DNA of 18,707 bases from Clostridiales bacterium UBA735 (GTDB lineage: Bacteria > Bacillota > Clostridia > Oscillospirales > Oscillospiraceae). The stretch is from positions 1 to 18,707 of the forward strand of contig DBLB01000059.1 of assembly GCA_002298695.1 (NCBI GenBank), written 5' to 3'. Shown piece after piece: positions 98 to 17,082 of the stretch. Made by a program: the position numbers and the translations under genes. Each line of letters begins with the position of its first letter. Position 1 is the first letter of the stretch. A model generated the notes under the pieces. That model was not told the origin of the DNA. It did no database searches and saw only the letters and a list, made by a program, of their open reading frames with translations.

Positions 98-1156
98 TCA
101 GTTCATTTTCCAGGCATGGCCGGCCTCGACCATGGCGCGGACATTTTCCACAGGCGCATCGACGGCGACCTCGCAGCCGCTGCCGAGGCAGAAACGTGCG
201 TGGTTGCGGGCGGCGATCTCCATGGTGGCGCGGGCCTCGGCCTGCACCTGCTCGGGCGTGCCGAGATAGATGGTCGTTGCGGGATTCAGATTGCCCATCA
301 GGCAGACCTTGTTGTTGACCGTTTTGCAGAGCCAGTCGAAATCCATCTTGCTGTCGACGATCATGATGTCGCAGCCGGTGTCCGCCATGAGCGGCGAGAC
401 GAGCGAGTTGTTGCCGCAGATGTGCAGCAGCTTGAGGAAATCGTGCTCGGGCTTCAGCTGGTCCATGGCCGCGAAGAACTTGCGCTCAAACGGCCAGGCA
501 TACTTTTTGTAGATCGTCGGGGAGATCATATTCATGGACGCCAGAGAATCGGCGTTCTGGATGATGTCCGCGCCGGACTGCACGCAGGCCGTGGCAAAGC
601 GGATAAGCGTATCGGTGCAGATGTCGATCATGTGCAGCAGATACTGCTGGCTCTCCTCGTCCTCCTCGACCTCGGCAGCCATGATGGCGGTGAGGAAATT
701 CTCCAGCCCCATCAGATGGCCGGCAATGGTGAACGGGCCGGTGCCGCAGGCGCGGATGGCAACCTCGCCCTGATAGTGCTCGTGCAGAAGGCGGACAGCG
801 TCGATGTAGACGGGCATGCGCCCCTCTTCAACGTCCGGGACACGGAGCTTCTCCACGTCGGAAAGCTCCTTGACAGGCACATCCAGCACAGAGGGCAGCG
901 CCTCTTTGTGCAGCTGGGTCTTCACGCCGAGCGCCTCGCAGATGTAATACTGCTCGGACTGGACGTTGACGGTGTCCTGTCCGGTTTTGTCGCGGCCGAT
1001 CTGCTGGGCCCTGGCCATGGTGGCGGCATCGGTATAACAGTCGCCGATGGCATAGCCGGAGTGGCGCAGGCAGAAATTTCCGTCATACGGTGTGACCGGG
1101 CAGCAGTCCGGCCTGCCGCCGCGCACGGCGGCGAAAACTCTTTCTCTTCCAGTCAT
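98..1156 (-). CDS. UroD-like protein 1 (MtaA/CmuA-like methyltransferase superfamily), H-x-C...C type
   Basis: A 352-residue single-domain protein of the uroporphyrinogen decarboxylase superfamily (COG0407), opening with MTGRERVFAAVRGGRPD, the usual start of this group. It carries His245-x-Cys247 (in LLHICGNN) and Cys328 (in LGSGCE). This matches the His-x-Cys...Cys zinc site of MtaA/MtbA-type methylcobamide:thiol methyltransferases, in which zinc activates the methyl-accepting thiol. The N-terminal substrate-binding motif of true HemE was not seen. The ATG is preceded by AAAGGAGT at suitable spacing, 33 bases after dctM, so it is the distal gene of the TRAP operon. Of the three UroD-like proteins here, it alone keeps the complete metal site. 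The role inferred is methyl transfer linked to the imported substrate. No corrinoid protein is visible in the window, so the acceptor is unknown. Confidence 0.85.
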   Translation of the reverse strand: MTGRERVFAAVRGGRPDCCPVTPYDGNFCLRHSGYAIGDCYTDAATMARAQQIGRDKTGQDTVNVQSEQYYICEALGVKTQLHKEALPSVLDVPVKELSDVEKLRVPDVEEGRMPVYIDAVRLLHEHYQGEVAIRACGTGPFTIAGHLMGLENFLTAIMAAEVEEDEESQQYLLHMIDICTDTLIRFATACVQSGADIIQNADSLASMNMISPTIYKKYAWPFERKFFAAMDQLKPEHDFLKLLHICGNNSLVSPLMADTGCDIMIVDSKMDFDWLCKTVNNKVCLMGNLNPATTIYLGTPEQVQAEARATMEIAARNHARFCLGSGCEVAVDAPVENVRAMVEAGHAWKMN

Positions 1157-1189
1157 GGGATCATACTCCTTTGCAGCGGGAACCCGGCG

Positions 1190-2455
1190 CTATTGCACCA
1201 GACTCGGAATGAACATCACAAGGTCGGGAATGAAAATCAGAAGCAGCAGCACAATGGCCAGCAGCGCATACCATGGAACCATTTCGACGGTCAGCTCTTC
1301 GATGCTCAGACCCGTGACCTTCGAGAGAATGAACAGGACCGTGCCGACCGGGGGCGTGATGGTGCCGATGGACATGATGATAGCGATCAGCACGCCGAGA
1401 TAGACCGGATCGATGCCGAGCAGCTTCACAACGGGAAGCATGATGGGCACAGTCGTGAGAATGATGGCAGTCGTCTCCATGATCATACCGAGGAACAGGT
1501 AGATGGCCGTGATGATCAGGAGCATGACGGTCTTGTGCGAGGTGATGGCAGAGATGGCTGCGGCGACCGCCTGCGGGACCTTGGCAAACGTCAGGCACCA
1601 GCCGAAGATCGAAGCGGTGGAGACGATGACCAGGATGACGCCGCTGGTGAGGGCCGTCTCCCAGAGGATGGATGGGATGTCCTTCCAGCTGATGGTCTTG
1701 TAGACGAAGATGCCGCAGATCAGCGCATAGACGGAGGCGATGGCGCCGGCCTCGGTCGGCGTGCAGATGCCGCCGAGAATGCCGCCGATGATGATGATCG
1801 GGGTGATCATGGCCCAGATGGCCTCTTTGAACGTACTCCAGAGGTTCTTCCAGCTGAAGCGGTCGCTGCGCGGATAATGGCGCTTGAGCGAGTAGATCGC
1901 AACGAGGCCCATTTCGGCCAGCGCAATGATAAGGCCCGGGATCACGCCGCCGAGGAACAGCCTGCTGATGGACACCTGGGCGGTGATGCCGTACATGATC
2001 ATGACCGTGGACGGCGGGATGATCGGACCGATGACAGAGGAGGCCGCCGTGACGGCGGTCGAGAACTTGATGTCATAGCCGTGGTCGGTCATGGCCTTGA
2101 TCTCGATCGGGCCGAGGCCGGCCGCGTCGGCAATGGCGGTACCGGACATGCCGGCGAAGATCGTGGAGGCAAAGACATTGACGTGGCCCAGGCCGCCGGG
2201 CAGAGGGCCGACAATGCTGTTGGCAAAGTTGAAGATCTTGCTGGTGATGCCGCTGCGGTTCATGATGACGCCGGCCAGAATGAAGAACGGCGCAGCCATG
2301 AGGCCGAAGTTATCCAGGCCGACGGCAAAGCGCTGCGCAAACGTTTGCAGCGAAATGGCATGCTCGGCAAAGAACGACAGGCCGGTCATGCCGAGCGCAA
2401 AGGAGATCGGCATGCCGAGCGCAATGAGGACAAACAGGACAAGAATCAGCGTCAT
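1190..2455 (-). CDS. dctM: TRAP transporter large permease DctM
   Basis: The 421-residue large membrane subunit of a tripartite ATP-independent periplasmic transporter, the channel-forming, ion-coupled part that moves organic acids across the cytoplasmic membrane. About a dozen hydrophobic segments cover the protein. Family features include the N-terminal LGMPISFALGMTGL, an FFILAGVIMN stretch, PIIPPSTVMIMYGI near the middle and the late TITPPVGTVLFI. The length is standard for DctM. Its ATG overlaps the dctQ stop as ATGA, which indicates translational coupling, and a UroD-like gene starts 33 bases downstream. The neighbouring KDG-pathway genes suggest a sugar-acid or related carboxylate substrate, but permease sequence alone does not identify it. 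Confidence 0.95.
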   Translation of the reverse strand: MTLILVLFVLIALGMPISFALGMTGLSFFAEHAISLQTFAQRFAVGLDNFGLMAAPFFILAGVIMNRSGITSKIFNFANSIVGPLPGGLGHVNVFASTIFAGMSGTAIADAAGLGPIEIKAMTDHGYDIKFSTAVTAASSVIGPIIPPSTVMIMYGITAQVSISRLFLGGVIPGLIIALAEMGLVAIYSLKRHYPRSDRFSWKNLWSTFKEAIWAMITPIIIIGGILGGICTPTEAGAIASVYALICGIFVYKTISWKDIPSILWETALTSGVILVIVSTASIFGWCLTFAKVPQAVAAAISAITSHKTVMLLIITAIYLFLGMIMETTAIILTTVPIMLPVVKLLGIDPVYLGVLIAIIMSIGTITPPVGTVLFILSKVTGLSIEELTVEMVPWYALLAIVLLLLIFIPDLVMFIPSLVQ

Positions 2456-2943
2456 TTGCTTTCGCCTCCTTTGCCAAAACTCCGGATCGTCAGGACGATC
2501 TGCCGGACAGAATAAAGCGTATACAGCACGCCGCCGATGCAGGACGGCGCGTAAAAGACGTTTTTATGGTAGCCGAGGCTGGTCATGAAGTCCATGGAGG
2601 TAGCCTTCGTGAACTGATAGCCGTAGACGGCGAGCACCACGCCGAACGCGGCGATGGCGAGATAGATCAGAATGGTCAGGATCTTTTGCAGCACCTTGGG
2701 CAGACGCTTGAACAGCACCTCGATATACGGGTGCTCCATCAGGCGGATGCCGGCGGCGGAGGAAAGAATGACGCACCAGACGGTGGCCAGACGGGCGAAT
2801 TCTTCGGACCAGGCGCAGGGGAACTTGAAAATGCGGGACAGCACCTCGATGAGGATCAGCAGCACCATCACGCCCATCAGCAGGGCGGAAAGCGCCTTGA
2901 GGACCTTCAGCAGAAGCTCGTCCGCTTTTTGCAGAATCTTCAT
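2452..2943 (-). CDS. dctQ: TRAP transporter small permease DctQ
   Basis: The 163-residue small membrane subunit of the TRAP transporter, with four hydrophobic segments and the conserved WSEEFAR sequence after the first one. It pairs with DctM to form the membrane complex. I start it at the ATG giving MKILQKADELLLKV because GAAGGAGA lies just upstream (2948-2955). A longer in-frame extension to 3024 would read through the inverted-repeat element and is rejected. The stop overlaps the dctM start (ATGA). The 251-base gap to dctP is unusually long for this operon and contains hairpins, so permease expression may be uncoupled from binding-protein expression. Confidence 0.93.
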   Translation of the reverse strand: MKILQKADELLLKVLKALSALLMGVMVLLILIEVLSRIFKFPCAWSEEFARLATVWCVILSSAAGIRLMEHPYIEVLFKRLPKVLQKILTILIYLAIAAFGVVLAVYGYQFTKATSMDFMTSLGYHKNVFYAPSCIGGVLYTLYSVRQIVLTIRSFGKGGESK

Positions 2944-2966
2944 AAAGTCTCCTTCCGTATTCGGTA

Positions 2967-3128
2967 GGGTGTATTCTTCCAACTGACGATGCGACCGGCG
3001 GCGAGGCATTTTCGCGCTGCGCAAGACATTTTTTCGCAGGAATCCTGACGTATTTCAAGGAAAAATGGTGCAGCGCAGCACGAAAAGGCCCGCTGTCCGG
3101 GTGCGTTGGGCGTTGGAAGAATACACCC
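2967..3128. repeat. 162-bp imperfect palindrome with 17-bp perfect terminal inverted repeats
   Basis: GGGTGTATTCTTCCAAC (2967-2983) is exactly reversed and complemented at 3112-3128. The two arms keep pairing further in, in register and without gaps: CCGG at 2995-2998 with 3097-3100, GGC at 3005-3007 with 3088-3090, a 14-base block at 3009-3022 with 3073-3086 (13 of 14 match), and TTTTTC at 3030-3035 with 3060-3065. The element fills most of the dctP-dctQ spacer and ends just before the dctQ SD. It could be a MITE-like insertion, a dispersed palindromic unit, or a long RNA hairpin acting in the operon mRNA. No clear target-site duplication was seen. Confidence 0.7.
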
Positions 3129-3131
3129 CTC

Positions 3132-3159
3132 GGACGCCGCATCCGCAGATGCGGCGTCC
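3132..3159 (-). other. Strong hairpin downstream of dctP (mRNA end-stabiliser or processing site)
   Basis: GGACGCCGCATC at 3132-3143 pairs perfectly with GATGCGGCGTCC at 3148-3159 around a 4-base loop. It lies 35 bases after the dctP stop and beside the 162-bp palindrome. On the minus strand it is followed by GAGGGGTGTAT with no U-tract, so it does not look like a full intrinsic terminator. Such hairpins after binding-protein genes commonly protect the upstream message. That role here is inferred. Confidence 0.7.
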
Positions 3160-3194
3160 CATTGCTCAGCTCAGTTTGCGGAATTTGGCAGGAG

Positions 3195-4319
3195 TTACTT
3201 CGTGAAGCCGGTGAAGGCGTCGTAAACTTCCTGGCCCCAGTTGTCCATCCACTGTTCGGCGACGGGCTTCGTGGCGTCCATCCACTCGGTGATGTCGAGC
3301 TCGGTGACGGTGACGCCCTTGGCCTCCATGTCCTCGATCATCTTGTTGATGCTCTCGTCGCGGAGCTCCTTGTGGTACTCGCCGGCCTCAACGACGGCCT
3401 CGTTGAACGCGGTCTGCTCTTCGGCGGAGAGGGAATTCCACACGTCGGCGTTCATCATGACGTACTGCACATACATCATGTGGTTGGTCAGCGCAAGATA
3501 CTTGGCCGCTTCATAGTAGCCGCCGGTGTAGAGCGAGTCGACCGGCATTTCCAGGCCGTCGATGACACCCTGTTCCAGCGCAGTGTAGCATTCGGTCATC
3601 GGCAGGGAGATTGGCAGCGCGCCATATGCGGCCCAGGTATCGACATAGAGCTGGTTGCCGGCAGGAACACGGATCTTCATGCCCTTGAGGTCGGCCAGAC
3701 AGGTGACGGGCTTGACGGTCAGCAGCTCACGCGGGGCCTGTGCCCAGCCGTAGAGCGTGTGGATGTTGGCGGCCGCTTCCACAGGGTCGTTGATGTATTT
3801 CTTACCGAGCTCGCCGTTCAGAACGGCCAGCATGGTGTCCTCATCGGAGAACGTGAAGTTGGAGACGGGCAGGTTCGCCGCAGCGACATAGGAGCCGTAC
3901 ACACCCGCGCCGAGCGCAGCCATGTCGAGAGAACCGGTGGAGCACATGTCGCGCAGCTCGGTCTCGGTGCCGAGCGTGCCGTCGGCAAAGACGTCGACCT
4001 CGATGCCGCCGCCGGTCTTTTCCTTCACGAGCTCCGCCATCTTCTGCAAAGACTGCTCAACGGCGGTGCCGGTGGAGTGATTGGTGGCGACCTTCAGGAC
4101 AAGGGTCTTCTCGCGGGTGGGCGCGACGGTATCGGCGGTCTCGGTGTCGGCGGTGTCCGCCGCAGTGTCGGTGCTGGTGGTCGTGTCGGTCGTTTCCGCG
4201 GGCGCCGCGTCGGCGGGCTGGGTATCTGCGGTATCGGTTTTCGCGGTGGAGGCGCAGCCTGCAAACAGGCTGAGCGTCAGGATGAGTGCCAGAAGAAGAG
4301 TCGGAATTCGCTTTTTCAT
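3195..4319 (-). CDS. dctP: TRAP transporter substrate-binding lipoprotein DctP
   Basis: A 374-residue extracytoplasmic binding protein of the DctP family. The ATG giving MKKRIPTLLLALILTLSLFAGC is chosen because AGGAGG precedes it and a lipoprotein signal peptide follows (lipobox LFAGC, lipidated Cys22). Residues 23-70 form a Thr/Asp/Ala-rich linker that tethers the domain to the membrane. The mature domain has KVATNHSTGTAVEQ near its start and LKGMKIRVP with Arg217, the position of the conserved arginine that binds the substrate carboxylate in this family. YTALEQGVIDGLE is also typical. It delivers an organic acid to DctQM, encoded downstream. The gene is bracketed by hairpins at 3132-3159 and 4342-4377. 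The ligand is inferred to be a sugar acid or derivative from the neighbouring KDG-pathway genes. Confidence 0.95.
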   Translation of the reverse strand: MKKRIPTLLLALILTLSLFAGCASTAKTDTADTQPADAAPAETTDTTTSTDTAADTADTETADTVAPTREKTLVLKVATNHSTGTAVEQSLQKMAELVKEKTGGGIEVDVFADGTLGTETELRDMCSTGSLDMAALGAGVYGSYVAAANLPVSNFTFSDEDTMLAVLNGELGKKYINDPVEAAANIHTLYGWAQAPRELLTVKPVTCLADLKGMKIRVPAGNQLYVDTWAAYGALPISLPMTECYTALEQGVIDGLEMPVDSLYTGGYYEAAKYLALTNHMMYVQYVMMNADVWNSLSAEEQTAFNEAVVEAGEYHKELRDESINKMIEDMEAKGVTVTELDITEWMDATKPVAEQWMDNWGQEVYDAFTGFTK

Positions 4320-4341
4320 AGTTTTTCCTCCTAATTTATTT

Positions 4342-4377
4342 CCACACTCTGCGCTGGGAAGACGCAGAGGAGCGTGG
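4342..4377 (-). other. Hairpin in the dctP leader
   Basis: CTCTGCG at 4347-4353 pairs with CGCAGAG at 4363-4369. An outer CCAC/GTGG pair (4342-4345 with 4374-4377) closes the structure across an internal loop. It sits in the 97-base gap between UroD-like gene 2 and dctP, just before the dctP SD. There is no U-tract, so it is not an evident terminator. It may mark a 5' processing or stabilising site for the dctP segment of the mRNA. Confidence 0.5.
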
Positions 4378-4416
4378 CAGAATGGATCTTGGCGCAAGGG
4401 GCGGAAAACGGGGCGC

Positions 4417-5466
4417 TCAGATATGGCGGCAGCGCTCGGCGGCGCGGAAATAGGCTTCGACGTTGGCCAGCGGGACGTCCTTGCCGACGCCGTTGGACGG
4501 GGCGATGATGAACCGGCCGTTCGTGCCGAGGATCGACGTGACCTCGGCAACGTTGGCCTCGACCTCCTCCGGCGTGCAGAACGGAAGCACCGACTGGTTG
4601 CAGATGCCGCCGAAGAAGGACAGCCGGTCGCCGTAGGCAGCGGCGAGCTCCTTCATGTTCAGCGCCTTAGGCTGGATGGGGTTGAGGACGTTGACGCCGA
4701 TCTCGATCAGATCGCCGATGATCGGCATGATCGCGCCGCAGCTGTGGTGGATGACCGGCAGCCCGGCATCGCGGTAGACGGCGATGATCTTCGCCAGACG
4801 CGGCTTGATGAACTTGCGCCAGATGTCCGGCGACATGATCATGGACGTCTGGGTGCCGTAGTCGTCGACGGTACGGCCGCAGTTGACGCCGATGGAAATG
4901 CAGCGCTTGGCGAGCTTCACATGGAAGGCTGTGATCTTATCGAGCAGCTCGTTCAGCAGATCCTCCTCCAGATAGAAGTCGGTCATCAGGTTTTCAAAGC
5001 CGCGCAGCATGTACGCGCGCTCGAACAGCGTGCAGAAGTGGTAGGACGTAACAATGTGCGTCTGGCTGTATTTGCCGACGATGTCCGTCAGGTAGTCCAG
5101 ATAGCCGGGGGCCCAGGGATCCGGGAATTTGTAGTGCTCAAAATTCTCCCAGTCCTCGAGCGGATGGCGGACGTAGTAGAGATCCTGCGTGGTATCCCAG
5201 TCGACGTCCCACTCGTCGGTGATGATGCGCGTGCTGGTGTCCTTGGTCTTCAGGCGCAGCGTCGCGCCGTTCATGTAGCCGTAGAGGACGTGGTTTTCAA
5301 AGAAGGGCAGCAGCTCCAGATCGCTGACATTGGAAATGCCCTTCGTGGCGAGAAACGCCTTGAGGCCGCTGCCGGAAAAATCGCACTGGATCGGCAGCAT
5401 GTCGATGTCCTGCCCGAAGGCACAGCGGGTAAAGCGCTCCCGCGGCGTCAGTTTTGCTCCGCTCAT
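4417..5466 (-). CDS. UroD-like protein 2, H-x-C type lacking the last metal cysteine
   Basis: A 349-residue uroporphyrinogen-decarboxylase-superfamily protein. I start it at the ATG giving MSGAKLTPRERFTRC, which has GAGGTG upstream and lies two bases after the preceding gene's stop; an in-frame start 16 codons earlier would overlap that gene. It has DDYGTQTSMIMSPDIWRKF at about 201-219 and His241-Ser-Cys243 in the metal-site loop. At the third ligand region the sequence is APSNGVG, with Asn325 roughly where UroD-like protein 1 has Cys328. It may therefore bind metal differently or act on another substrate. The family includes methyltransferases and many uncharacterised members next to sugar-catabolism genes. 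It is co-transcribed between UroD-like gene 3 and dctP. Exact reaction unknown. Confidence 0.85.
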   Translation of the reverse strand: MSGAKLTPRERFTRCAFGQDIDMLPIQCDFSGSGLKAFLATKGISNVSDLELLPFFENHVLYGYMNGATLRLKTKDTSTRIITDEWDVDWDTTQDLYYVRHPLEDWENFEHYKFPDPWAPGYLDYLTDIVGKYSQTHIVTSYHFCTLFERAYMLRGFENLMTDFYLEEDLLNELLDKITAFHVKLAKRCISIGVNCGRTVDDYGTQTSMIMSPDIWRKFIKPRLAKIIAVYRDAGLPVIHHSCGAIMPIIGDLIEIGVNVLNPIQPKALNMKELAAAYGDRLSFFGGICNQSVLPFCTPEEVEANVAEVTSILGTNGRFIIAPSNGVGKDVPLANVEAYFRAAERCRHI

Positions 5467-5468
5467 AC

Positions 5469-6536
5469 TCACACCTCGATCGGATAATGGCCGTATTTGC
5501 GCGCCGCCTCGCACATGGCGTAGACGTTGCGGTTGGGAATGTCGTCATGGACGCTGTGGTCAGACCCAAGGCAGTAGCCGCCGCCGGGCGCAGCCTTGTG
5601 GATGCAGTCCTTGACCATGGCGTCGATGTCCTCCTCCGTGCCGGAGACGAGGACGCCGACATTGTCGATGTTGCCGAACAGCGTCAGCTTGTCGCCGTAG
5701 CGGGTCTTGATGTCGCCGATCTCCATGTCGGCGCAGCGCTGGATGGGGTGCAGACCGTCGATGCCGCAGGCGATGATCTCGGGGATGAGCTTGGCGATGT
5801 TGCCGTCGCTGTGCAGGATCATCTTCAGGCCGAGCTCGTCGGCCACGGCCTTGATGCGCTTGAGCTGCGGGGCCATGAACTCGCGGAACGTCTCCGGAGA
5901 GAACAGCGGCGCCTGCGTGGAACCGTAGTCGTCGGAGTAGATGAGCGCGTCGACGCCCATCTTGGCCATGCGGCGCGAGCAGGCGATGGCAAAATCGGTG
6001 CAGGCGGTCAGGGCCTCATGCACGACGTCGGGATCCGTGTAGAACATGCACAGAAATTCTTCCATGCCGAACAGCTGCCACGCAGCCGAGAACGGGCCGC
6101 GCATGTTGCCGATGACGCCCATGCCGTAAGCTTCGGCGCGGCGCAGGCACTCGGCCAGGCCGATGTAGCGGAACTCGGCCTCGGGATCTGGCATTTTGTA
6201 GCCTGCCCAGTCGTCCGCGCTCTCCAGCGGCGACTTGATGCCGGCGTCGATGGGCCAGGTATTGGGGTCGGACTTGCGGGTGATGCCCCACTCGTCGACG
6301 TAGATCGTGTCGACCTCTTCCTCAGGCGGGAAGCCCGCGACGCCGGGGATGGGAATGAAAGCGAAATCGTAGCCCATCTTGTGGCTGAGCTCGATGACAC
6401 TCACCGGGTCGAAGGTCTTGGGAATGAAGCCGAATTGCTCCTGGAAGATGTGCCGGCTGTAGACGCATTCAAACACGGGAACCATATCCGGCTCCTGATG
6501 GTTGAGCGCGCAGTGCAGACGTTCGCGTCCTGTCAT
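5469..6536 (-). CDS. UroD-like protein 3, H-x-D type without metal cysteines
   Basis: A 355-residue protein of the same superfamily, starting MTGRERLHCALNHQEPDMVP. The ATG has a strong AGAGGAGG SD, 42 bases after kdgK. Around 201-219 it reads SDDYGSTQAPLFSPETFRE, like UroD-like protein 2. The metal-site loop is LHSDGN, with His242 and Asp244 replacing His-x-Cys. The third-ligand region is LGSDHSVHDD, with Asp326 or His327 where a cysteine is expected. It is thus a divergent paralogue, not a recent duplicate of the others. The N-terminal half keeps the TIM-barrel pattern. It could be an enzyme with a hard-ligand metal site, a lyase or isomerase, or a methyltransferase with a different methyl source. 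Function not assigned. Confidence 0.83.
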   Translation of the reverse strand: MTGRERLHCALNHQEPDMVPVFECVYSRHIFQEQFGFIPKTFDPVSVIELSHKMGYDFAFIPIPGVAGFPPEEEVDTIYVDEWGITRKSDPNTWPIDAGIKSPLESADDWAGYKMPDPEAEFRYIGLAECLRRAEAYGMGVIGNMRGPFSAAWQLFGMEEFLCMFYTDPDVVHEALTACTDFAIACSRRMAKMGVDALIYSDDYGSTQAPLFSPETFREFMAPQLKRIKAVADELGLKMILHSDGNIAKLIPEIIACGIDGLHPIQRCADMEIGDIKTRYGDKLTLFGNIDNVGVLVSGTEEDIDAMVKDCIHKAAPGGGYCLGSDHSVHDDIPNRNVYAMCEAARKYGHYPIEV

Positions 6537-6578
6537 AGTAATTTCCTCCTCTGATGTCCTGATATGATACGGCGCGGG

Positions 6579-7604
6579 TCAGCGCTGGACGCGCCCGGTG
6601 CCGTCTCCCCCCATGAGTGTTTCCACGCTGGAAACGGATACGCGGTTGAAATCTCCGGAAATGCTGTGCTTCAGGCAGGAAGCGGCCGCGGCGAATTCCA
6701 GTGCGGTCTGCCTGTCTTCGTAGTGGTTCAGGCCGTAGATCAGCCCGCCGGCAAAGCTGTCGCCGCCGCCGACGCGGTCCACGATGTCACGGATCTCGTA
6801 CTTTTTCGAAACATAGAAGTGTTCGCCGTCATTCAGGCACGCGGCCCAGCCGTTCCAGTCGGCGCTGTGGCTTTCGCGCAGCGTGATGGCGATGAGCTTC
6901 ATATTCGGATAGGTCTCGAGGACCTTGCTGCCAAGCGCACGGTATTTTTCACGGTCGAGCTCGGCGGATCCGACGTTCACGTCGACCGTGATCCCCAGGG
7001 ATTTCTGCACATCCTCTTCGTTGGCAATGGCCACATCGACATAGTTTGCAAGCTCCCGCATGACCTCGCCGGCGGTTTTGCCGTATTTCCAGAGGTTTTT
7101 GCGGTAATTGAGGTCGCAGGAGACGGTAATGCCGCGCTGTCTGGCCTCGCGGACGGCCTCGAGCGAGAGGCGCATCGCCGATTCGCTGATGGCCGGGGTA
7201 ATGCCCGTGATGTGGAACCACCCGACGCCCTCAAGCGCCTTGTCCCAGTCGATGTCGCCGGGCGCGGCGAGCGCGATGGAGGAGTTGGCGCGGTCGTAGA
7301 CGACCTTGCTCGGCAGCTGGTTCGCGCCGGCCTCCAGATAGTAGATACCCATGCGCCCCGGGCCGCGGAGGATCCTTCCGGTGCCGACGCCGAAATAGCG
7401 GAGCTCCCGGATGCAGCAGTCGGCAATGTCGTTTTCGGGCAGAACGGTCAGAAATTCCGCGTCCATGCCGAAGTTGGCAAGCGAGACGGCCACATTGGCC
7501 TCGCCGCCGCCGAACGTCGCTTCCAGCGTGGGAGACTGGAAGAACCGCTCGCAGCCGGGCGTCTTCAGGCGGAGCATGATCTCGCCGAATGTCAGAACTT
7601 TCAT
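6579..7604 (-). CDS. kdgK: 2-keto-3-deoxygluconate kinase (PfkB family)
   Basis: A 341-residue ribokinase/PfkB-family sugar kinase. It begins [17 protein letters not shown] and has [16 protein letters not shown] at 31-46, the substrate-side motif typical of KDG kinases. The C-terminal PfkB signature is [17 protein letters not shown] at about 276-292, with catalytic Asp282 in the anion hole. It should phosphorylate 2-keto-3-deoxygluconate with ATP to KDPG, which the adjacent aldolase then splits. The SD AAGGAGG includes the stop codon of the aldolase gene, so the two are tightly coupled. Related PfkB enzymes use other sugars, but the aldolase neighbour strongly supports KDG. Confidence 0.92.
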
Positions 7605-7617
7605 CGTGTGTGCCTCC

Positions 7618-8574
7618 TTATTTTTGCAGCAGGTGGACGGCGAAGCCGCCGAAGTCTTCCTTCAGATACACGGCGATCAGACGCCCGCCCTTGTATTTGG
7701 CCGTTTCCATGTCGCACGCAAAGCCGCGCCGTTCAAGCTCTGCCATGGCCAGCTCGACGGAGTTCGTGCGGATGGCGATGTGGCCGTGTGTGCCGAGGTA
7801 CCTTGATTTCATGACCTCGATGCTTCCGGAGGCGAAGTTGGAGGAAGCGCCCTCCTTCACCGGAAGATCGAACGCGCGGCAGAGCGTTTCGCAGAGCGCG
7901 AGCGACGCCTCACCGTTTTCGCAGTTCACGCCGATGTGCGCCACCTCAAAGCCGAGCGCAGCCGCTCTGGCCTGCCGGCAGAGGTCGGTGATCTTTTCAA
8001 AGTTTCCGGCGGCGATGTCCGCCTTCGGGCAGACCCAGCTGCCGCCGACGGCGTGGACAAACGGCGCGGCGAGGAATTCTCCGAGGTTCTGGCCGTTGAC
8101 GCCGCCGGTCGGAATGAATTTGACGCCGCCGAACGGGCCGGACAGGGCCTTCATCGCGGCCAGACCGCCATAGATGTTGGCGGGGAAGAACTTGAGCACG
8201 TGCAGGCCGTAGCGCTGCGCGGCAAGAATTTCCGTCGGGGTGACGCAGCCGGGCGTAACGGCCACGCCGTGCTCTACGCAGTGGCGGACAACTTCTTCGT
8301 TGAAGCCGGGCTCCACGATGAACTGCGCGCCGCAGTCCAGCGCGGTGCGGCACTGGTCGAGCGTGTTGACGGTGCCTGCGCCGACGAGCATTTCGGGGCA
8401 CTGCCCGGCGACGGCACGGATGGCGTCGGCCGCAGCCGCGGTGCGGAACGTGATCTCCATCACGTCAACGCCGCCGGCCAGCAGCGCGCGGGCCGTGGGG
8501 ACGGCGTCTGCGGCGTTGTCCAGCACAACAACGGGGACAATGCCGCAGCGGAGCATGCGATTCAGAGCATCCAT
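7618..8574 (-). CDS. eda: KDPG aldolase fused to a C-terminal VOC (glyoxalase-fold) domain
   Basis: A 318-residue protein, about 100 longer than a standard KDPG/KHG aldolase. Residues 1-205 are the class I aldolase: Glu40 in [13 protein letters not shown] at 65-69, the Schiff-base Lys128 in [11 protein letters not shown], and TGGVN at 156-160. It cleaves KDPG to pyruvate and glyceraldehyde-3-phosphate, and may also act on 4-hydroxy-2-oxoglutarate. Residues about 208-318 form a VOC-type half, with His213 in VAHIGVN, Glu253 in GSIEVM, His265 in GHIAIRTNS and His314 near the end, which could bind a metal. The SD TGAGGAGG overlaps the stop of the upstream gene. The VOC part may be catalytic, for example an epimerase acting on the imported acid, or only structural. 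Confidence 0.92.
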
Positions 8575-8585
8575 GGCGCGCCTCC

Positions 8586-9641
8586 TCAGTCAAACAGGGG
8601 CAGCGGAAGCCCGGTTTCTTCGGCCAGCGCCCGGATGGACTGCTCGACCTCGGGCGGCAGCGTGATGCCCTCCGCGCTGGCCTTGCGCTGCTTTTCCCAT
8701 TCGATCTCGCCCGGGACGAAGATCTTGCCGCCGGCCGCGGTGGGCGCGGCATGGAGCTTTTCGCTCAGCGCCTCCACGCGCTCGGCAACCGGCTGCTCCA
8801 TGCCGAACAGCGCCGGGTTGATCGCGATGAACACGTGGCTGACGTTGTTTTTCTTTTCCGGTTCGAAGCACCAGCTGACGATCTCGCCGCTGGCGCTCGT
8901 CGGGCCGCCGGAGAGAATGGCGGTCAGCAGCTCGACAAGGACGGCCAGGCCGTAGCCCTTGTGCGCGCCCATGGGCTGCATGGCGCCCTCCTCGGGGTAG
9001 TGGCTGGGGTCGGTGGTGGGCAGGCCGTCCTTGTCCACGATCCAGGTGGGCGGGATCTGGCGGCCGTCCTTGCGGGCCTGTACGACCTTCAGCGAGGCGA
9101 CGTTGCTCAGCGCGATGTCGAGAAAGACGCTCGGCTCGCTGACAGACGGTGCGGCGTAGGCCACGGGGTCATTGCCGAGCACCATGCCCTTTGCGCCGGG
9201 GATGGTCATATTGGGATCGACATTGCTCATGGCAAGGCCGATCATGCCGCGCTTGGCGGCCATGTTGACATAGTAGCTGGCCGCGCCGAAGTGGCAGCTG
9301 TGGCGCACGGTCACAAGCGCAATGCCGGACTGCGCAGCCTTGCCGCAGGCAAGCTGCATCGCCTTGCAGGACGTCACCATGCCGAGCGCGTTGTGCGCGT
9401 CGGCGACGGCGTAGGCCGGGCCTTCGGCCACGATCTCAAATTTTCCGTGCAGGTCGAGGCCGCCGACGGCCGCCTTGTGCAGATAACCCGAAAGATTTTT
9501 GCTGCCGTGGGTGTGCAGGCCATAGGCGTCCGTTTCCGTCAGAACGTCGGCTGCCATTGCGGCCTCGGCGGCATCCATGCCGGCGCGGCACAGCGCATCC
9601 CGGCAGAAGTTTTTCAGATCAGAAATATGAATTTTGCTCAC
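8586..9641 (-). CDS. Ldh2-family NAD(P)-dependent oxidoreductase (malate/lactate/2,3-diketogulonate reductase type)
   Basis: A 351-residue member of the Ldh2/YlbC/DlgD family, which interconverts 2-hydroxy acids and 2-oxo acids with NAD(P)H. Family features are THGSKNLSGYL with His45 as the likely catalytic residue, GMVTSCKAMQLA at 87-98, HFGAASYY at 117-124, KGMVLGNDPVAYAAP and MGAHKGYGLA. The start codon is GTG (MSKIHISDLKNF) with GAGAGGG upstream; an out-of-frame ATG nearby runs straight into a stop. It is the first gene of the operon, after a leader of roughly 150 bases. In this context it probably oxidises or reduces a sugar-acid intermediate on the way to KDG. The exact substrate cannot be read from the sequence. 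Confidence 0.9.
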   Translation of the reverse strand: MSKIHISDLKNFCRDALCRAGMDAAEAAMAADVLTETDAYGLHTHGSKNLSGYLHKAAVGGLDLHGKFEIVAEGPAYAVADAHNALGMVTSCKAMQLACGKAAQSGIALVTVRHSCHFGAASYYVNMAAKRGMIGLAMSNVDPNMTIPGAKGMVLGNDPVAYAAPSVSEPSVFLDIALSNVASLKVVQARKDGRQIPPTWIVDKDGLPTTDPSHYPEEGAMQPMGAHKGYGLAVLVELLTAILSGGPTSASGEIVSWCFEPEKKNNVSHVFIAINPALFGMEQPVAERVEALSEKLHAAPTAAGGKIFVPGEIEWEKQRKASAEGITLPPEVEQSIRALAEETGLPLPLFD

Positions 9642-9785: not shown

Positions 9786-9824
9786 TTATAGTTCAAAGAT
9801 ACCATTTGACGCACTTGTTGTCAA
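9785..9824 (-). promoter_or_regulatory. Predicted promoter of the catabolic operon
   Basis: On the minus strand TTGACA (9824-9819) is followed after 17 bases by TATCTT (9801-9796), a 6/6 and 4/6 match to the sigma-A consensus. A perfect TATAAT also occurs at 9790-9785, but at a poor distance from any good -35. The -35 hexamer lies in the small palindrome GTTGACAAC. The leader to the GTG start would be about 150 bases. Confidence 0.55.
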
Positions 9825-10005: not shown

Positions 10006-10797
10006 TTGCATTTGAACAACACGCTGCTGAAAACGATGTCCATCCTCCGGCTTCTGGCCGGACAGGAGGAGGGGCTGACGCTGACAGAGATCTGCGAGGC
10101 GCTCTCCCTGCCCAAAAGCTCGGCCTTTGATATTTTGCAGACGCTGGCCCACGAGGGCTATCTCGAGATCAGCGGCCGGCGCACGCCGGCTTACCATCTG
10201 GGGCTGGAAGCGTTCCGCATCGGCAGTGCCTATCTCAACAGCGTGGATCTGAACAGTGCGGCAGCGCCGATCCTCTCTTCGCTCTGCCAGGAGATCAACG
10301 AGACCGTCTTCATGTCGGTGCGCAGCGGCGCGCACGACCTGGTGTACGTGCTGAAATACCTGTCGCAGTCGGAGCTCCAGACGGTCTCCACCGTCGGCAC
10401 GGTGCGCGGCCTGCTCGAAGTGGCGATGGGAAAGGCCATTCTGGCCGCCCTGCCGAATGCGCAGGCGCTCGAGGCCGTGACGCCGGATATGTACCAGAGC
10501 TGCAGCGTCGCCTCCATCCGCGACCCGGCGTCGCTGATCGACTTTCTGGACGAGGTGCGGTACGTGGGCTACGTCGTGGACGGGACGAGCGAAAACTCCT
10601 TCCCTGTCCGTCCGGTGGCCGCACCGATTCTGGATGCAAACAACACAGTCCTCGGAGCGGCGAGCGTCGTGTCCGTCTCAGCCTGCAACTCCGACGAACG
10701 GCTGAAGGAGCTCGGCGGGATCATCCAGCGGACGTCGCTGCAGATCTCGCAGCGTCTCGGCTATCTCGGAGACGATTTGTACGCGCAGGCCCGGTAG
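10006..10797 (+). CDS. IclR-family transcriptional regulator
   Basis: A 263-residue regulator with the IclR layout: an N-terminal winged helix-turn-helix (about 1-65, with LTLTEICEALSLPKSSAFDILQTLAHEGYLE) and a C-terminal effector-binding domain (about 75-250). The start codon is TTG (protein MHLNNTLLKTMSILRLL), with GGGGTG six bases upstream; a second TTG two codons later is also possible. The effector domain includes GTVRGLLEVAMGKAILAALP and SENSFPVRPVAAPILDANN, typical of the family. It is divergent from the catabolic operon, so it is probably the local regulator, sensing the substrate or a KDG-pathway intermediate. IclR proteins may repress or activate. The gene ends at a bidirectional terminator. 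Confidence 0.95.
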   Translation: MHLNNTLLKTMSILRLLAGQEEGLTLTEICEALSLPKSSAFDILQTLAHEGYLEISGRRTPAYHLGLEAFRIGSAYLNSVDLNSAAAPILSSLCQEINETVFMSVRSGAHDLVYVLKYLSQSELQTVSTVGTVRGLLEVAMGKAILAALPNAQALEAVTPDMYQSCSVASIRDPASLIDFLDEVRYVGYVVDGTSENSFPVRPVAAPILDANNTVLGAASVVSVSACNSDERLKELGGIIQRTSLQISQRLGYLGDDLYAQAR

Positions 10798-12985: not shown

Positions 12986-13012
12986 AAGTGATCATAATGA
13001 GGAGTGTGCCCT

Positions 13013-14533
13013 ATGCAGAAAAACGTGCTGGAATATCTGGAAGCCTCCGCGCAGCGCTGCCCGGAAAAGATCGCCTTTGCCGACGGCGCACGCAGCTTTA
13101 CGTATGCGCAGCTGCTCGCCAGCGCCAAAGGTCTTGGCACACATCTGGCCGGAACGGCCCCCTGTCTGCGCCGCCCCGTCGCGGTACTCATCGGCCGCAC
13201 TGCGGAGAGCATCGCGGCCATGCAGGGCGTGCTCTACGCCGGCGGCTGTTACGTCCCGATCGACGACCACATGCCGGAGGCGCGTATGCGCAAGATCTTC
13301 GAACAGGTACGCCCCGCCGCCATCGTCTTTGCCGAGGCCAACCGCGCCGCGGCCGAGCTGGTCGCCGACTGCGCGCCGCTCGTTTTCATGGAGGATGGCT
13401 TTCAGACCAAACCTGACGAGGCGCTCCTCACTGCCCTTCGCGAACAGGTCATCGACCTCGACCCGCTCTATCTGCTCTTCACCTCCGGCTCCACCGGCAC
13501 GCCCAAGGGCATCGTCATCCCACACCGCGCGATGATCGACTTTGCCGACTGGATGAGCGAATTCTGCGGCTACACCGAGGACGATGTCTTCGGCAATCAG
13601 GCGCCGTTCTATTTTGACCTCTCCTGCAAGGACGTCTACCAGACGCTCCGCCTCGGCGCGACGTGCCGCATTTTTGATAAGAAATTCTTCACCTTCCCGA
13701 TGCTCCTGCTGCAGGAGATGGAGCGGGCGGGCGTCACCGCCATCAACTGGGCGACCTCAGCGTTCCATCTCGTCGCCAGCTCCGGCGCACTCGAAAAATA
13801 CGCGCCCACCACATTGAAAAAGGCCGCCCTCGGCGGCGAAGCGCTCCAGGCGCGCTACGTCAACGCCTGGAAGGCCGCCGTCCCCGGCCTCTCGGTCGTC
13901 AATATGTACGGCCCGACGGAGACGACCGTCGACTGTACCGCCATACACCTCACGCGCGACTATCGCGACGACGAAGCCATCCCCATCGGCACGGCCTGCC
14001 GCAACATGCAGATCCTGCTGCTCGGCGAGGACGGCCAGCCCGTTGAGCCGGGTCAGCCGGGCGAGATCTGCGTCCGCGGCACCGGCGTTGCCAGCGGCTA
14101 CTTCGGCGACCCGGAAAAGTCCGACGCGGTCTTCATTCAAAACCCCTGCAACCCCTACTTCCGCGACATTCTCTATAAAACAGGCGACCTCGCCGTCCAG
14201 CGCGAGGACGGTCTGCTCTACTTCCTCTCCCGCCGCGACGGCCAGATCAAGCACATGGGCTATCGCATCGAGCTCGGCGAAATTGAGGTCGCCCTGCACA
14301 GCGTCCCCGGCATCCGCGCCGCCGCCTGCCTCTTCGATCAGTCGCGCGACCGCATCCTCTGCATCTATGCCGGTTCGCCCGACAGTGCGGAGCTGGCGAA
14401 AGCCATGCGGAAGCTTGTGCCGAAATACATGCTCCCGAACATCTATGAAAAGCTCGACGCGCTGCCCTACAACGCCAACGGCAAGATCGACCGGGTGCAG
14501 CTGAAGGAGCGATACCTGCATGCAGAAAATTGA
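13013..14533 (+). CDS. DltA-like amino-acid adenylation enzyme (carrier-protein ligase)
   Basis: A 506-residue ANL-superfamily adenylating enzyme starting at the ATG eight bases after GAGGAG (MQKNVLEYLEASAQRCP). Core motifs are complete: TSGSTGTPKG (157-166), NMYGPTET (297-304), YKTGDL (388-393), a hinge near DGQIKHMGYRIELGEIEVAL, and Lys491 in NGKIDR. It should activate an amino acid as adenylate and load it on the carrier protein encoded two genes downstream. NQAPFYFDLSCKDVYQ (195-210) matches DltA around its substrate-binding Asp. The CGE triplet of characterised DltA is GGE here (Gly274). D-alanine is the default expectation, but that substitution could change selectivity. The 3' end overlaps the next gene by 14 bases. 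Confidence 0.9.
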   Translation: MQKNVLEYLEASAQRCPEKIAFADGARSFTYAQLLASAKGLGTHLAGTAPCLRRPVAVLIGRTAESIAAMQGVLYAGGCYVPIDDHMPEARMRKIFEQVRPAAIVFAEANRAAAELVADCAPLVFMEDGFQTKPDEALLTALREQVIDLDPLYLLFTSGSTGTPKGIVIPHRAMIDFADWMSEFCGYTEDDVFGNQAPFYFDLSCKDVYQTLRLGATCRIFDKKFFTFPMLLLQEMERAGVTAINWATSAFHLVASSGALEKYAPTTLKKAALGGEALQARYVNAWKAAVPGLSVVNMYGPTETTVDCTAIHLTRDYRDDEAIPIGTACRNMQILLLGEDGQPVEPGQPGEICVRGTGVASGYFGDPEKSDAVFIQNPCNPYFRDILYKTGDLAVQREDGLLYFLSRRDGQIKHMGYRIELGEIEVALHSVPGIRAAACLFDQSRDRILCIYAGSPDSAELAKAMRKLVPKYMLPNIYEKLDALPYNANGKIDRVQLKERYLHAEN

Positions 14534-15308
14534 AGCCTTCGCACAGGCCGCCGGGCTGCTCGGCGCCCAGCTCCGCCGCGGCGTCGTCACCAACAGCTTC
14601 CTCACCGCCGCCGACTGTGACCGCGAGGCCAAGACCGGCCTCTACGTCTACGAGGCCGACGGCGAGCTGCTCGTCTTCCGCGACCGGGGGACCCATTATA
14701 TCCTGAACTTTTTCCTGCAGCAGGGCGCGCGTCCCGCGCTGCCGGAGCTTTCAAAGCCCGTCGTCACCGAGCTGGCCTACCGGCCCAAGGATGCCGACGT
14801 GATGCGCACCGCGGCGGCCTATTTCCGCGCGATCGGCTTCAGCGAGGTGCTGCGCCGGACGCGCCGCACCCGCGCCGCCGCGCCGATCCCGCAGGAAGCG
14901 GGCGCGTTTGCCGCGCGGGAAGATCGATTTGATGCGGTCGACGCCTTCCTGCGCAGTCAGTTTTCGCGCTGGACCGGATGTCTCCCTACAGAGGCCGCGC
15001 TGCGTGCCGCGCTGGGCGCGGGACAGATCTTATGCGCCGAAGACGGGCACGGGATCTGTGGCCTGCTGCACTTTGCGCCGGGCCGCGCCGCGTCGGAGCT
15101 CCGGCATCTCGCCGTCCGCGAGGACTGCCGCCGCCAGGGCGTGGCAAATGCGCTGTTTGACGCATATATGGCCGCGACCGTCGGGCAGAAAAGCCTTGTC
15201 TGGGCGCGCACAGGAAATGAAGCCGCCGAACGCTTCTACGAATCACACGAATACCGGCCCGACGGATGGGAATCCATCGTGCTGCAATATGGAGGAACCG
15301 AACAATGA
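14520..15308 (+). CDS. GNAT-family acetyltransferase-like protein inside the dlt-like operon
   Basis: A 262-residue protein. The C-terminal part (about 155-262) has the GNAT core: LRHLAVREDCRRQGVANALF, where RRQGVA (204-209) is the acyl-CoA pyrophosphate loop, followed by NEAAERFYESHEY. The first 150 residues are less clear and could be a degenerate second GNAT fold. Its ATG overlaps the adenylation gene by 14 bases with AAGGAG upstream, and its stop overlaps the carrier gene (ATGA), so it is expressed in step with both. Classical dltABCD operons do not contain such a gene. It may acylate the carried amino acid, the acceptor, or a precursor made for the pathway. The substrate cannot be inferred from sequence. 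Confidence 0.85.
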   Translation: MQKIEAFAQAAGLLGAQLRRGVVTNSFLTAADCDREAKTGLYVYEADGELLVFRDRGTHYILNFFLQQGARPALPELSKPVVTELAYRPKDADVMRTAAAYFRAIGFSEVLRRTRRTRAAAPIPQEAGAFAAREDRFDAVDAFLRSQFSRWTGCLPTEAALRAALGAGQILCAEDGHGICGLLHFAPGRAASELRHLAVREDCRRQGVANALFDAYMAATVGQKSLVWARTGNEAAERFYESHEYRPDGWESIVLQYGGTEQ

Positions 15309-15532
15309 GAGAACAGATCATCGAGATTTTGACCGAAATCTGCCCCGGCGTGGACTTTGAACAGGAGACCGCCCTGATCGACGACGGCCTGATCGACTCG
15401 CTCGACATCGTCGCTGTTGTGACCGATCTGATGGATACGTTTGACGTCCAGCTCGGCGTGGATGACCTGACGCCGGAGAACTTCAACTCCGTCGACGCCA
15501 TCTGCCAGCTCATCGAGCGCGCACAAGGCTGA
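15305..15532 (+). CDS. DltC-like acyl/aminoacyl carrier protein
   Basis: A 75-residue acidic carrier protein with Ser32 in GLIDSLDIV as the 4'-phosphopantetheine attachment site. Length and the DSLD motif match DltC and small ACPs. The start at the ATG within the ATGA overlap is chosen because GGAGG lies nine bases before it; a longer frame from 15266 has no SD. It should accept the activated amino acid from the adenylation enzyme as a thioester and present it to the MBOAT protein at the membrane. Its stop overlaps the MBOAT start (TGATG). Confidence 0.93.
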   Translation: MREQIIEILTEICPGVDFEQETALIDDGLIDSLDIVAVVTDLMDTFDVQLGVDDLTPENFNSVDAICQLIERAQG

Positions 15533-17073: not shown

Positions 17074-17082
17074 GGAGGACCT

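What the first reader, a model, noticed from the sequence alone, without database searches (positions are those of the whole stretch)
98..9641. TRAP/KDG operon with three UroD-like proteins: candidate pathway for an O-methylated or otherwise unusual sugar acid
Seen: one directional run of TRAP genes, KDG kinase, KDPG aldolase and an oxidoreductase, interleaved with three UroD-superfamily genes. Known: MtaA/CmuA-like members transfer methyl groups, whereas ordinary hexuronate operons use isomerase, reductase and dehydratase genes, none of which is visible here. Inference: the imported acid carries a group, such as the O-methyl of 4-O-methylglucuronate, that the UroD-like proteins remove before entry to the KDG route. 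No corrinoid protein or reactivase lies in the window, so the methyl acceptor is missing or encoded elsewhere.
Basis: partly seen in the sequence, partly recalled or inferred. Interest (0 to 1): 0.75.

Follow-up and report, generated by a model that had tools for sequence, protein, structure and literature searches.

The report
Sugar-acid operon with three methyltransferase-like proteins
A bacterial gene set for importing and breaking down a sugar acid carries three proteins related to enzymes that move methyl groups with vitamin B12, which suggests, untested so far, that the bacterium strips methyl caps from sugars before using them.

Summary
The UroD proteins are not HemE; their nearest solved relative is the corrinoid methyltransferase MtaA. 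Each has its own conserved site: UroD1 HxC..C (zinc/thiol type), UroD2 HxC with N for the third Cys, UroD3 HxD..DH. The window holds no corrinoid protein and its genome is not available, but all 8 UroD2-bearing genomes found encode a free-standing corrinoid protein and a RACE reactivase on other contigs, and at least 6 of 8 a methyl-THF transferase. That fits an acceptor in trans, though RACE alone is common (50-58% of sampled genomes). UroD2/UroD3-clade pairs also recur around a rhamnose-isomerase-like and a rhamnulokinase-like gene beside ABC transporters in two other genomes, and corrinoid proteins adjoin or share clusters with UroD2-like genes in three. Best reading (0.55): an O-demethylation module for a methylated sugar acid that uses a shared corrinoid hub. 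4-O-methylglucuronate is one candidate (0.2). No activity has been shown.

The parts
98..1156 (-). UroD1: URO-D superfamily, MtaA-like, complete HxC..C site (H245, C247, C328)
   Evidence: Pfam PF01208 221 bits; TIGR01463 208.3 bits, cut-off 235.4; site invariant in the 120 listed of 185 homologues
1190..2455 (-). TRAP large permease DctM
   Evidence: PF06808 9.8e-122
2452..2943 (-). TRAP small permease DctQ (start chosen by me)
   Evidence: PF04290 6.8e-23
3195..4325 (-). TRAP solute-binding protein DctP (start chosen by me)
   Evidence: PF03480 4.6e-63
4417..5466 (-). UroD2: URO-D superfamily, H241xC243, N325 where MtaA has its third Cys, extra C289
   Evidence: PF01208 1.9e-26; H, C and N in 61 of 62 core homologues (one gap), C289 in 60 of 62; model pLDDT 94.2, best solved match 4ay7
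5469..6536 (-). UroD3: URO-D superfamily, H242xD244 and D326-H327; 2 bases before UroD2
6579..7604 (-). PfkB sugar kinase, KDG-kinase type
   Evidence: PF00294 5.7e-25; NF041633 kinase half 484.5 bits (cut-off 700 is for the fusion)
7618..8574 (-). KDPG/KHG aldolase with a C-terminal glyoxalase-like stretch
   Evidence: PF01081 1.9e-63, TIGR01182 above cut-off; PF00903 sub-threshold in residues 205-318
8586..9641 (-). Ldh_2 family alpha-hydroxy/keto acid oxidoreductase
   Evidence: PF02615 4.7e-104
9796..9824 (-). promoter-like site upstream of the run (TTGACA-17-TATCTT, extended -10)
   Evidence: consensus match only
10006..10797 (+). divergent IclR-family regulator
   Evidence: PF01614 4.9e-26, PF09339 7.2e-16

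Best explanation
The operon imports a sugar acid that carries an O-methyl group (inferred), removes the methyl with a UroD-fold pair, UroD3 and UroD2 acting as the donor-specific methyltransferase (inferred), and feeds the freed acid through KDG kinase and KDPG aldolase to pyruvate and glyceraldehyde phosphate (follows from the families). The methyl goes to a free-standing corrinoid protein encoded elsewhere, kept active by a RACE protein and unloaded onto tetrahydrofolate by an 'IIGEKINGSIP' methyltransferase (genes shown in relatives, roles inferred). UroD1, with the complete MtaA-type site, is the likeliest second methyl-transfer partner, with a thiol or the corrinoid protein (inferred). 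One reason for the clustering: a methyl on O4 of KDG would block the retro-aldol step of Eda, so it would have to go before that step (chemical inference).
For: UroD1-3 score far below the HemE cut-off and best against MtaA-type models. The nearest solved structure is MtaA 4ay7, by sequence for all three and by fold for UroD2 and UroD3. Conserved, distinct sites. UroD3 lies in 7 of 8 UroD2 loci and UroD1 in 5 of 8, in MAGs titled Lachnospiraceae, Oscillospiraceae, Clostridia and Treponema; UroD3 and UroD2 are directly adjacent in 5 of 8 and in the window. The core UroD3 (66) and UroD2 (62) hit lists share 14 contig lengths, 0.35 expected by a simple jitter; the first 27 UroD1 hits share 4 with UroD2. 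Corrinoid protein and RACE in 8 of 8 of these genomes. In G003, G004 and G006 the only PF02607 match and the only RACE match are neighbours, with no UroD or MT II relative beside them by BLAST, while the URO-D search hit its ceiling of 10 matches. MT II in at least 6 of 8, beside the corrinoid protein in G002 and G005. Among 195 genomes of the G004 family, RACE is in 100 of 120 with URO-D and 14 of 75 without. UroD2/UroD3-clade pairs flank RhaI-like and rhamnulokinase-like genes in L101 and L109. A UroD2-like gene directly precedes the corrinoid gene in G001 and G008, and L097 holds ABC, URO-D and corrinoid genes within 12 kb. CODH/ACS gamma subunit in the 3 genomes where a candidate was scanned.
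Against: No activity has been shown for any member. The window's genome is not held, so the trans partners are unproven for this organism. RACE alone is common: 114 of 195 and 150 of 300 genomes in two family samples, though 1 of 14 control genomes. PF02607 is in 9 of 14 controls. 20 of 120 URO-D genomes have no RACE match; one of them, G075, has at least 10 URO-D matches, including a UroD1 relative of 51% identity. These are drafts and kinship was not corrected for. UroD2 and UroD3 lack the full zinc site of MtaA. HemE structures follow MtaA closely in the fold lists. Among the 8 loci only L002 shares the kinase and none the aldolase by BLAST; carbon genes and transporters vary.
Confidence: 0.55

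Rival explanations
1. The UroD proteins are corrinoid-independent enzymes of the URO-D/MetE fold that act on the sugar acid itself (lyase, isomerase or thiol-dependent step), and the corrinoid genes of relatives serve other substrates.
For: No PF02607 or RACE match on the contigs that hold the eight UroD2 loci; UroD2 and UroD3 lack the MtaA site; 20 of 120 URO-D genomes without a RACE match. The missing dehydratase or isomerase step could be theirs.
Against: URO-D and RACE co-occur strongly; the models that score best are methyltransferases; UroD2-like genes adjoin or cluster with corrinoid genes in G001, G008 and G423.
Confidence: 0.22
2. As the best explanation, but with 4-O-methyl-D-glucuronate from glucuronoxylan as the specific substrate (a sub-case of it).
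For: O4 methylation would block the aldolase step (inference); UxaC in 6 of 8 relatives (7 of 14 controls); several relatives are termite-gut MAGs by recalled bin names, a wood diet; G006 has a GH67 gene.
Against: GH67 in only 1 of 8 (GH115 not searched); no uronate isomerase or dehydratase in the window; a carbohydrate-type ABC transporter in L004, and by gene size or sequence start in L003 and L006, suggests another import form.
Confidence: 0.2
3. The trio handles a methyl-sulfur or methyl-selenium compound, like the Mlp proteins of type 1 mlp clusters, and sits in a sugar operon by chance.
For: Three UroD paralogues as in many type 1 clusters (PMC10418091, Results part 1 and Discussion read); UroD1 has the thiol-type site.
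Against: No corrinoid or RACE gene in the window, unlike type 1 clusters; transporter and sugar-gene context recurs in other loci. Orthology with Mlp1-3 was not tested.
Confidence: 0.06

Closest known systems
MtaA, methylcobalamin:coenzyme M methyltransferase (PDB 4ay7)
   Same: URO-D fold; UroD1 keeps the HxC..C positions; top solved match of all three by sequence and of UroD2 and UroD3 by fold
   Different: 18-21% identity in the UroD2/UroD3 fold alignments; UroD2 and UroD3 have other residues in the site; bacterial sugar-acid operon
UroD-superfamily donor methyltransferases CdmB, OdmB, VdmB, MtvB, MtoB (PMC13222342, passages read)
   Same: UroD-superfamily enzymes that move a methyl to a corrinoid protein; zinc is not always needed; that paper also counts partners encoded elsewhere in the genome
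   Different: substrates are aromatic methyl ethers or haloalkanes; not compared by sequence here; no sugar operon in the passages read
Type 1 mlp gene clusters (PMC10418091, Results part 1 and Discussion read)
   Same: several UroD paralogues that act as a set
   Different: carry their own corrinoid protein and RACE and are tied to methyl-S/Se; the window has neither gene
Rhamnose operon (RhaI, rhamnulokinase) and hexuronate/KDG operon
   Same: transporter, regulator, kinase and aldolase or isomerase
   Different: canonical operons lack UroD genes (recalled); the RhaI-like and kinase genes beside UroD pairs score below their family cut-offs (L101 498 of 531 and 429 of 528; L109 486 and 390)

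Membership tests
Corrinoid-dependent methyltransferase system (MT I, corrinoid protein, MT II, activating enzyme) | URO-D-fold methyltransferase-like protein | tested here: met
   (the fold is shared with HemE, so this is necessary, not sufficient)
Corrinoid-dependent methyltransferase system (MT I, corrinoid protein, MT II, activating enzyme) | Free-standing corrinoid protein and RACE in the same genome | tested here: inconclusive
   window genome not held; present in 8 of 8 UroD2-bearing genomes found
Corrinoid-dependent methyltransferase system (MT I, corrinoid protein, MT II, activating enzyme) | MT II (methyl-THF:corrinoid type) in the same genome | tested here: inconclusive
   not testable for the window; Pterin_bind match in 7 of 8 relatives (13 of 14 controls, so not specific); MT II identity by NCBIfam for 3 and by BLAST or N-terminus for 3 more
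Corrinoid-dependent methyltransferase system (MT I, corrinoid protein, MT II, activating enzyme) | Measured methyl transfer | not testable with these tools
   needs enzyme assay
MtaA/CmuA family (TIGR01463) | score over the curated cut-off 235.4 | tested here: not met
   208.3, 74.4, 125.2 bits for UroD1, 2, 3
MtaA-type zinc/thiol site | HxC and a third Cys in UroD1 | tested here: met
   120 of 120 homologues examined; zinc ligands of MtaA are recalled and placed by the alignment
MtaA-type zinc/thiol site | HxC and a third Cys in UroD2 and UroD3 | tested here: not met
   UroD2 N325; UroD3 D244 and D326-H327
HemE uroporphyrinogen decarboxylase (TIGR01464) | score over cut-off 302.95 | tested here: not met
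   89.5, 20.2, 33.5 bits
Type 1 mlp gene cluster | corrinoid protein and RACE in the cluster | tested here: not met
   none among the 16 window proteins scanned; the window ends 97 bases beyond UroD1, so genes further on are not seen
Type 1 mlp gene cluster | orthologues of Mlp2 and Mlp3 | not tested
   Mlp sequences were not fetched
Canonical hexuronate operon | uronate isomerase, reductase and mannonate/altronate dehydratase | tested here: not met
   no UxaC or dehydratase family match in the 16 window proteins scanned; Ldh_2 is a possible reductase

The most novel reading that the evidence does not exclude
There is an unrecognised class of anaerobic, corrinoid-dependent sugar O-demethylases. 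A two-protein UroD2/UroD3 module is plugged into different sugar operons (sugar acid with KDG kinase, rhamnose-type sugar with RhaI and rhamnulokinase), each member fitted to one methylated sugar, and all share a single corrinoid protein, RACE and methyl-THF transferase encoded elsewhere, so that gut anaerobes feed sugar methyl caps into one-carbon metabolism and acetogenesis.
Probability: 0.35. Interest if true: 0.85.

Novelty: new variant of a known kind. Interest (0 to 1): 0.62.

Why it matters
O-methylated sugars cap plant and algal glycans, and oxygen-dependent removal is known (both recalled). My searches of the open-access library found no paper on corrinoid demethylation of sugars (listings). 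If UroD pairs do this, many 'uroporphyrinogen decarboxylase' genes of gut anaerobes (1772 and 684 hits at E 1e-3 for UroD3 and UroD2) could gain a testable role, and one corrinoid protein serving many substrate-specific enzymes would be an unusual hub design.

Tried and rejected
HemE function: rejected by scores. Own-genome searches: the window's genome is not held. The 8-of-8 corrinoid/RACE result as proof: base rates of RACE are 58% and 50% in two samples, so it is weak taken alone. 4-O-methylglucuronate as a firm claim: GH67 in 1 of 8, so lowered. MTTB as the user of the corrinoid proteins: MTTB only in G007, 1 of 8; MtaB (PF12176) was not searched. Type 1 mlp membership: cluster feature not met in the window, orthology not tested. 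Transporter linkage of distant UroD2 relatives: of the 8 non-core matches lie directly beside ABC transporter genes (Peripla_BP_4 sugar-type binding proteins in 2 of the 6, the rest called sugar-type from layout) and 2 (L033, L034) do not; no chance model was run. LarC/LarE as operon partners: in L001 they are convergent with UroD3, so not in one transcript. L097's second UroD does not fall in the UroD3 clade. Paper searches gave nothing specific on methylated sugars and UroD. Not measured: corrinoid-protein base rate in the family samples, GH115, URO-D counts above the ceiling of ten per genome, branch supports of the tree.
Full report
Observation. The minus-strand run at 98-9641 is as described: Ldh_2, KDPG aldolase, PfkB kinase of the KDG type, UroD3, UroD2, TRAP DctP-DctQ-DctM, UroD1. 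The aldolase has an extra 114-residue C-terminus with a weak, sub-threshold glyoxalase match. No corrinoid protein or reactivase was found among the 16 of 17 called window genes that I scanned; the window ends 97 bases beyond UroD1, so the end of the operon may not be in view.

Conservation of the set. One scan of genome contigs with the UroD2 alignment gave 8 loci. UroD3 is in 7 of 8 (L008 ends at a contig edge, inside DctM) and UroD1 in 5 of 8. UroD3 and UroD2 are directly adjacent in L002, L003, L004, L005 and L007 and in the window. TRAP genes accompany the set in L001, L002 and L008. L004 has a carbohydrate-type ABC transporter and a BNR protein; L006 has a similar set by sequence start, with its BNR gene confirmed, plus oligopeptide-type ABC genes; L003 looks the same by gene sizes only. 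Ldh_2 is in L001 and L007, the kinase in L002, the aldolase in none. In L005 a LarA-type protein lies further along on the same strand (44 bits); in L001 a LarC-type gene is next to UroD3 but convergent. Core UroD2 and UroD3 hit lists share 14 contig lengths.

Partners in trans. In the 8 genomes, a free-standing corrinoid protein (open frame of 270 aa or less) and a RACE match are present in 8 of 8, on contigs other than those of the UroD2 loci. Pterin_bind proteins occur in 7 of 8, which is not specific. The 'IIGEKINGSIP' methyl-THF:corrinoid transferase is over the NCBIfam cut-off in G001, G002 and G006, found by BLAST in G003 and G004 and by its N-terminus in G005; G008 has only the Pfam match and G007 none. 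It is next to the corrinoid protein in G002 and G005. In G003, G004 and G006 the only PF02607 match and the only RACE match are neighbours with no UroD or MT II relative beside them by BLAST (no other methyltransferase type was tested there), while the URO-D search reached its ceiling of 10 matches. In G001 and G008 a UroD2-like gene (34% identical) directly precedes the corrinoid gene, with LacI-type regulators and an RbsA-like ABC gene nearby by eye. The CODH/ACS gamma subunit is over its cut-off in G002, G003 and G007, the three that were scanned.

Base rates. RACE is in 114 of 195 genomes of the G004 family and 150 of 300 sampled from the G005 family, and in 1 of 14 control genomes, so 8 of 8 is modest support. 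Within the 195, RACE is in 100 of 120 genomes with URO-D and 14 of 75 without (Fisher p 1e-19, kinship not corrected). Twenty URO-D genomes have no RACE match, including G075 with at least 10 URO-D matches, one of them a 51% relative of UroD1. UroD2 is rare: with the profile at E 1e-60, 6 of 195, 2 of 300 and 4 of 397 genomes, of which 4, 1 and 1 are core members.

Link to sugars beyond the window. Of the 8 non-core UroD2 matches, six lie directly beside ABC transporter genes and two do not. Two of the six have sugar-type Peripla_BP_4 proteins next to them; the others are called sugar-type from their layout. In L101 (G001-family sample) and L109 (G004-family sample) the order is ABC transporter, UroD2-clade protein, RhaI-like isomerase, UroD3-clade protein, rhamnulokinase-like kinase (the ABC genes of L109 by eye). 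A FastTree of 80 proteins, midpoint-rooted, supports not inspected, places these UroD proteins with UroD2 and UroD3. In L097 (G423) ABC genes, a UroD2-like gene, two further URO-D proteins outside the UroD3 clade and a corrinoid protein (62.5% identical to a Treponema one) lie within 12 kb, with one gene on the other strand just before the corrinoid gene.

Mechanism. The simplest account is a donor-specific methyltransferase (UroD3 with UroD2) that moves an O-methyl group of a sugar acid to a shared corrinoid protein, with RACE and a methyl-THF transferase completing the cycle. The kinase and aldolase then give pyruvate and glyceraldehyde phosphate. If the methyl is on O4, its removal before the aldolase is required by the chemistry. 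The roles of UroD1 (thiol-type site) and Ldh_2 are open. None of these steps is shown by experiment. 4-O-methylglucuronate is a reasonable candidate, but the GH67 and operon data do not single it out.

Literature. PMC10418091 (Results part 1 and Discussion read) describes UroD-type Mlp clusters for methyl-S/Se with their own corrinoid protein and RACE. PMC13222342 (passages read) states that the UroD superfamily holds donor methyltransferases for aromatic ethers and chloromethane, some without zinc, and counts partners found elsewhere in the genome. All other papers were seen as search listings only. In the open-access library my ten searches found no paper on corrinoid demethylation of sugars.

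The statement that L097 is the only corrinoid link was dropped, since G001 and G008 also have one; LarC is now told as convergent, the ABC calls and the 'no methyltransferase' statement are limited to what was scanned, and G075's UroD1 relative was added.

Noticed in passing
window 13004-18707 (+): A dlt-like set: AMP-binding enzyme (13004-14533), GNAT acetyltransferase (14520-15308), an 88-aa acyl-carrier-like ORF (15266-15532, not scanned), MBOAT (15532-17073), then a long protein, DltD-like at its start by eye, with a polysaccharide deacetylase domain, that runs off the window.
   Followed up: partly
window 7618-7962 (-): C-terminal 114 residues of the KDPG aldolase resemble a glyoxalase/VOC domain below the Pfam cut-off; role unknown.
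   Followed up: partly
L101 9139-14048; L109 7676-12623: UroD2/UroD3-clade pair around a RhaI-like isomerase and next to a rhamnulokinase-like kinase, same order in two family samples: candidate operon for a methylated rhamnose-type sugar.
   Followed up: partly
L002 9748-10767; L050 3813-4850; L099 4749-5702; L108 7639-8553: CobW-family GTPases (L002 by Pfam, the others by sequence start) lie in regions with UroD genes; possible metal supply for them.
   Followed up: no
L097 10148-11419; L104 219-1475; L105 11402-12658: Proteins of about 420 aa, alike by eye, recur beside or near UroD genes; the two that were scanned (L097, L104) have no NCBIfam match and a sub-threshold or no Pfam match.
   Followed up: no
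L005 7415-8808; L006 11125-11625: UPF0047 protein near UroD genes in two loci, with a TIM-family protein in L005.
   Followed up: no
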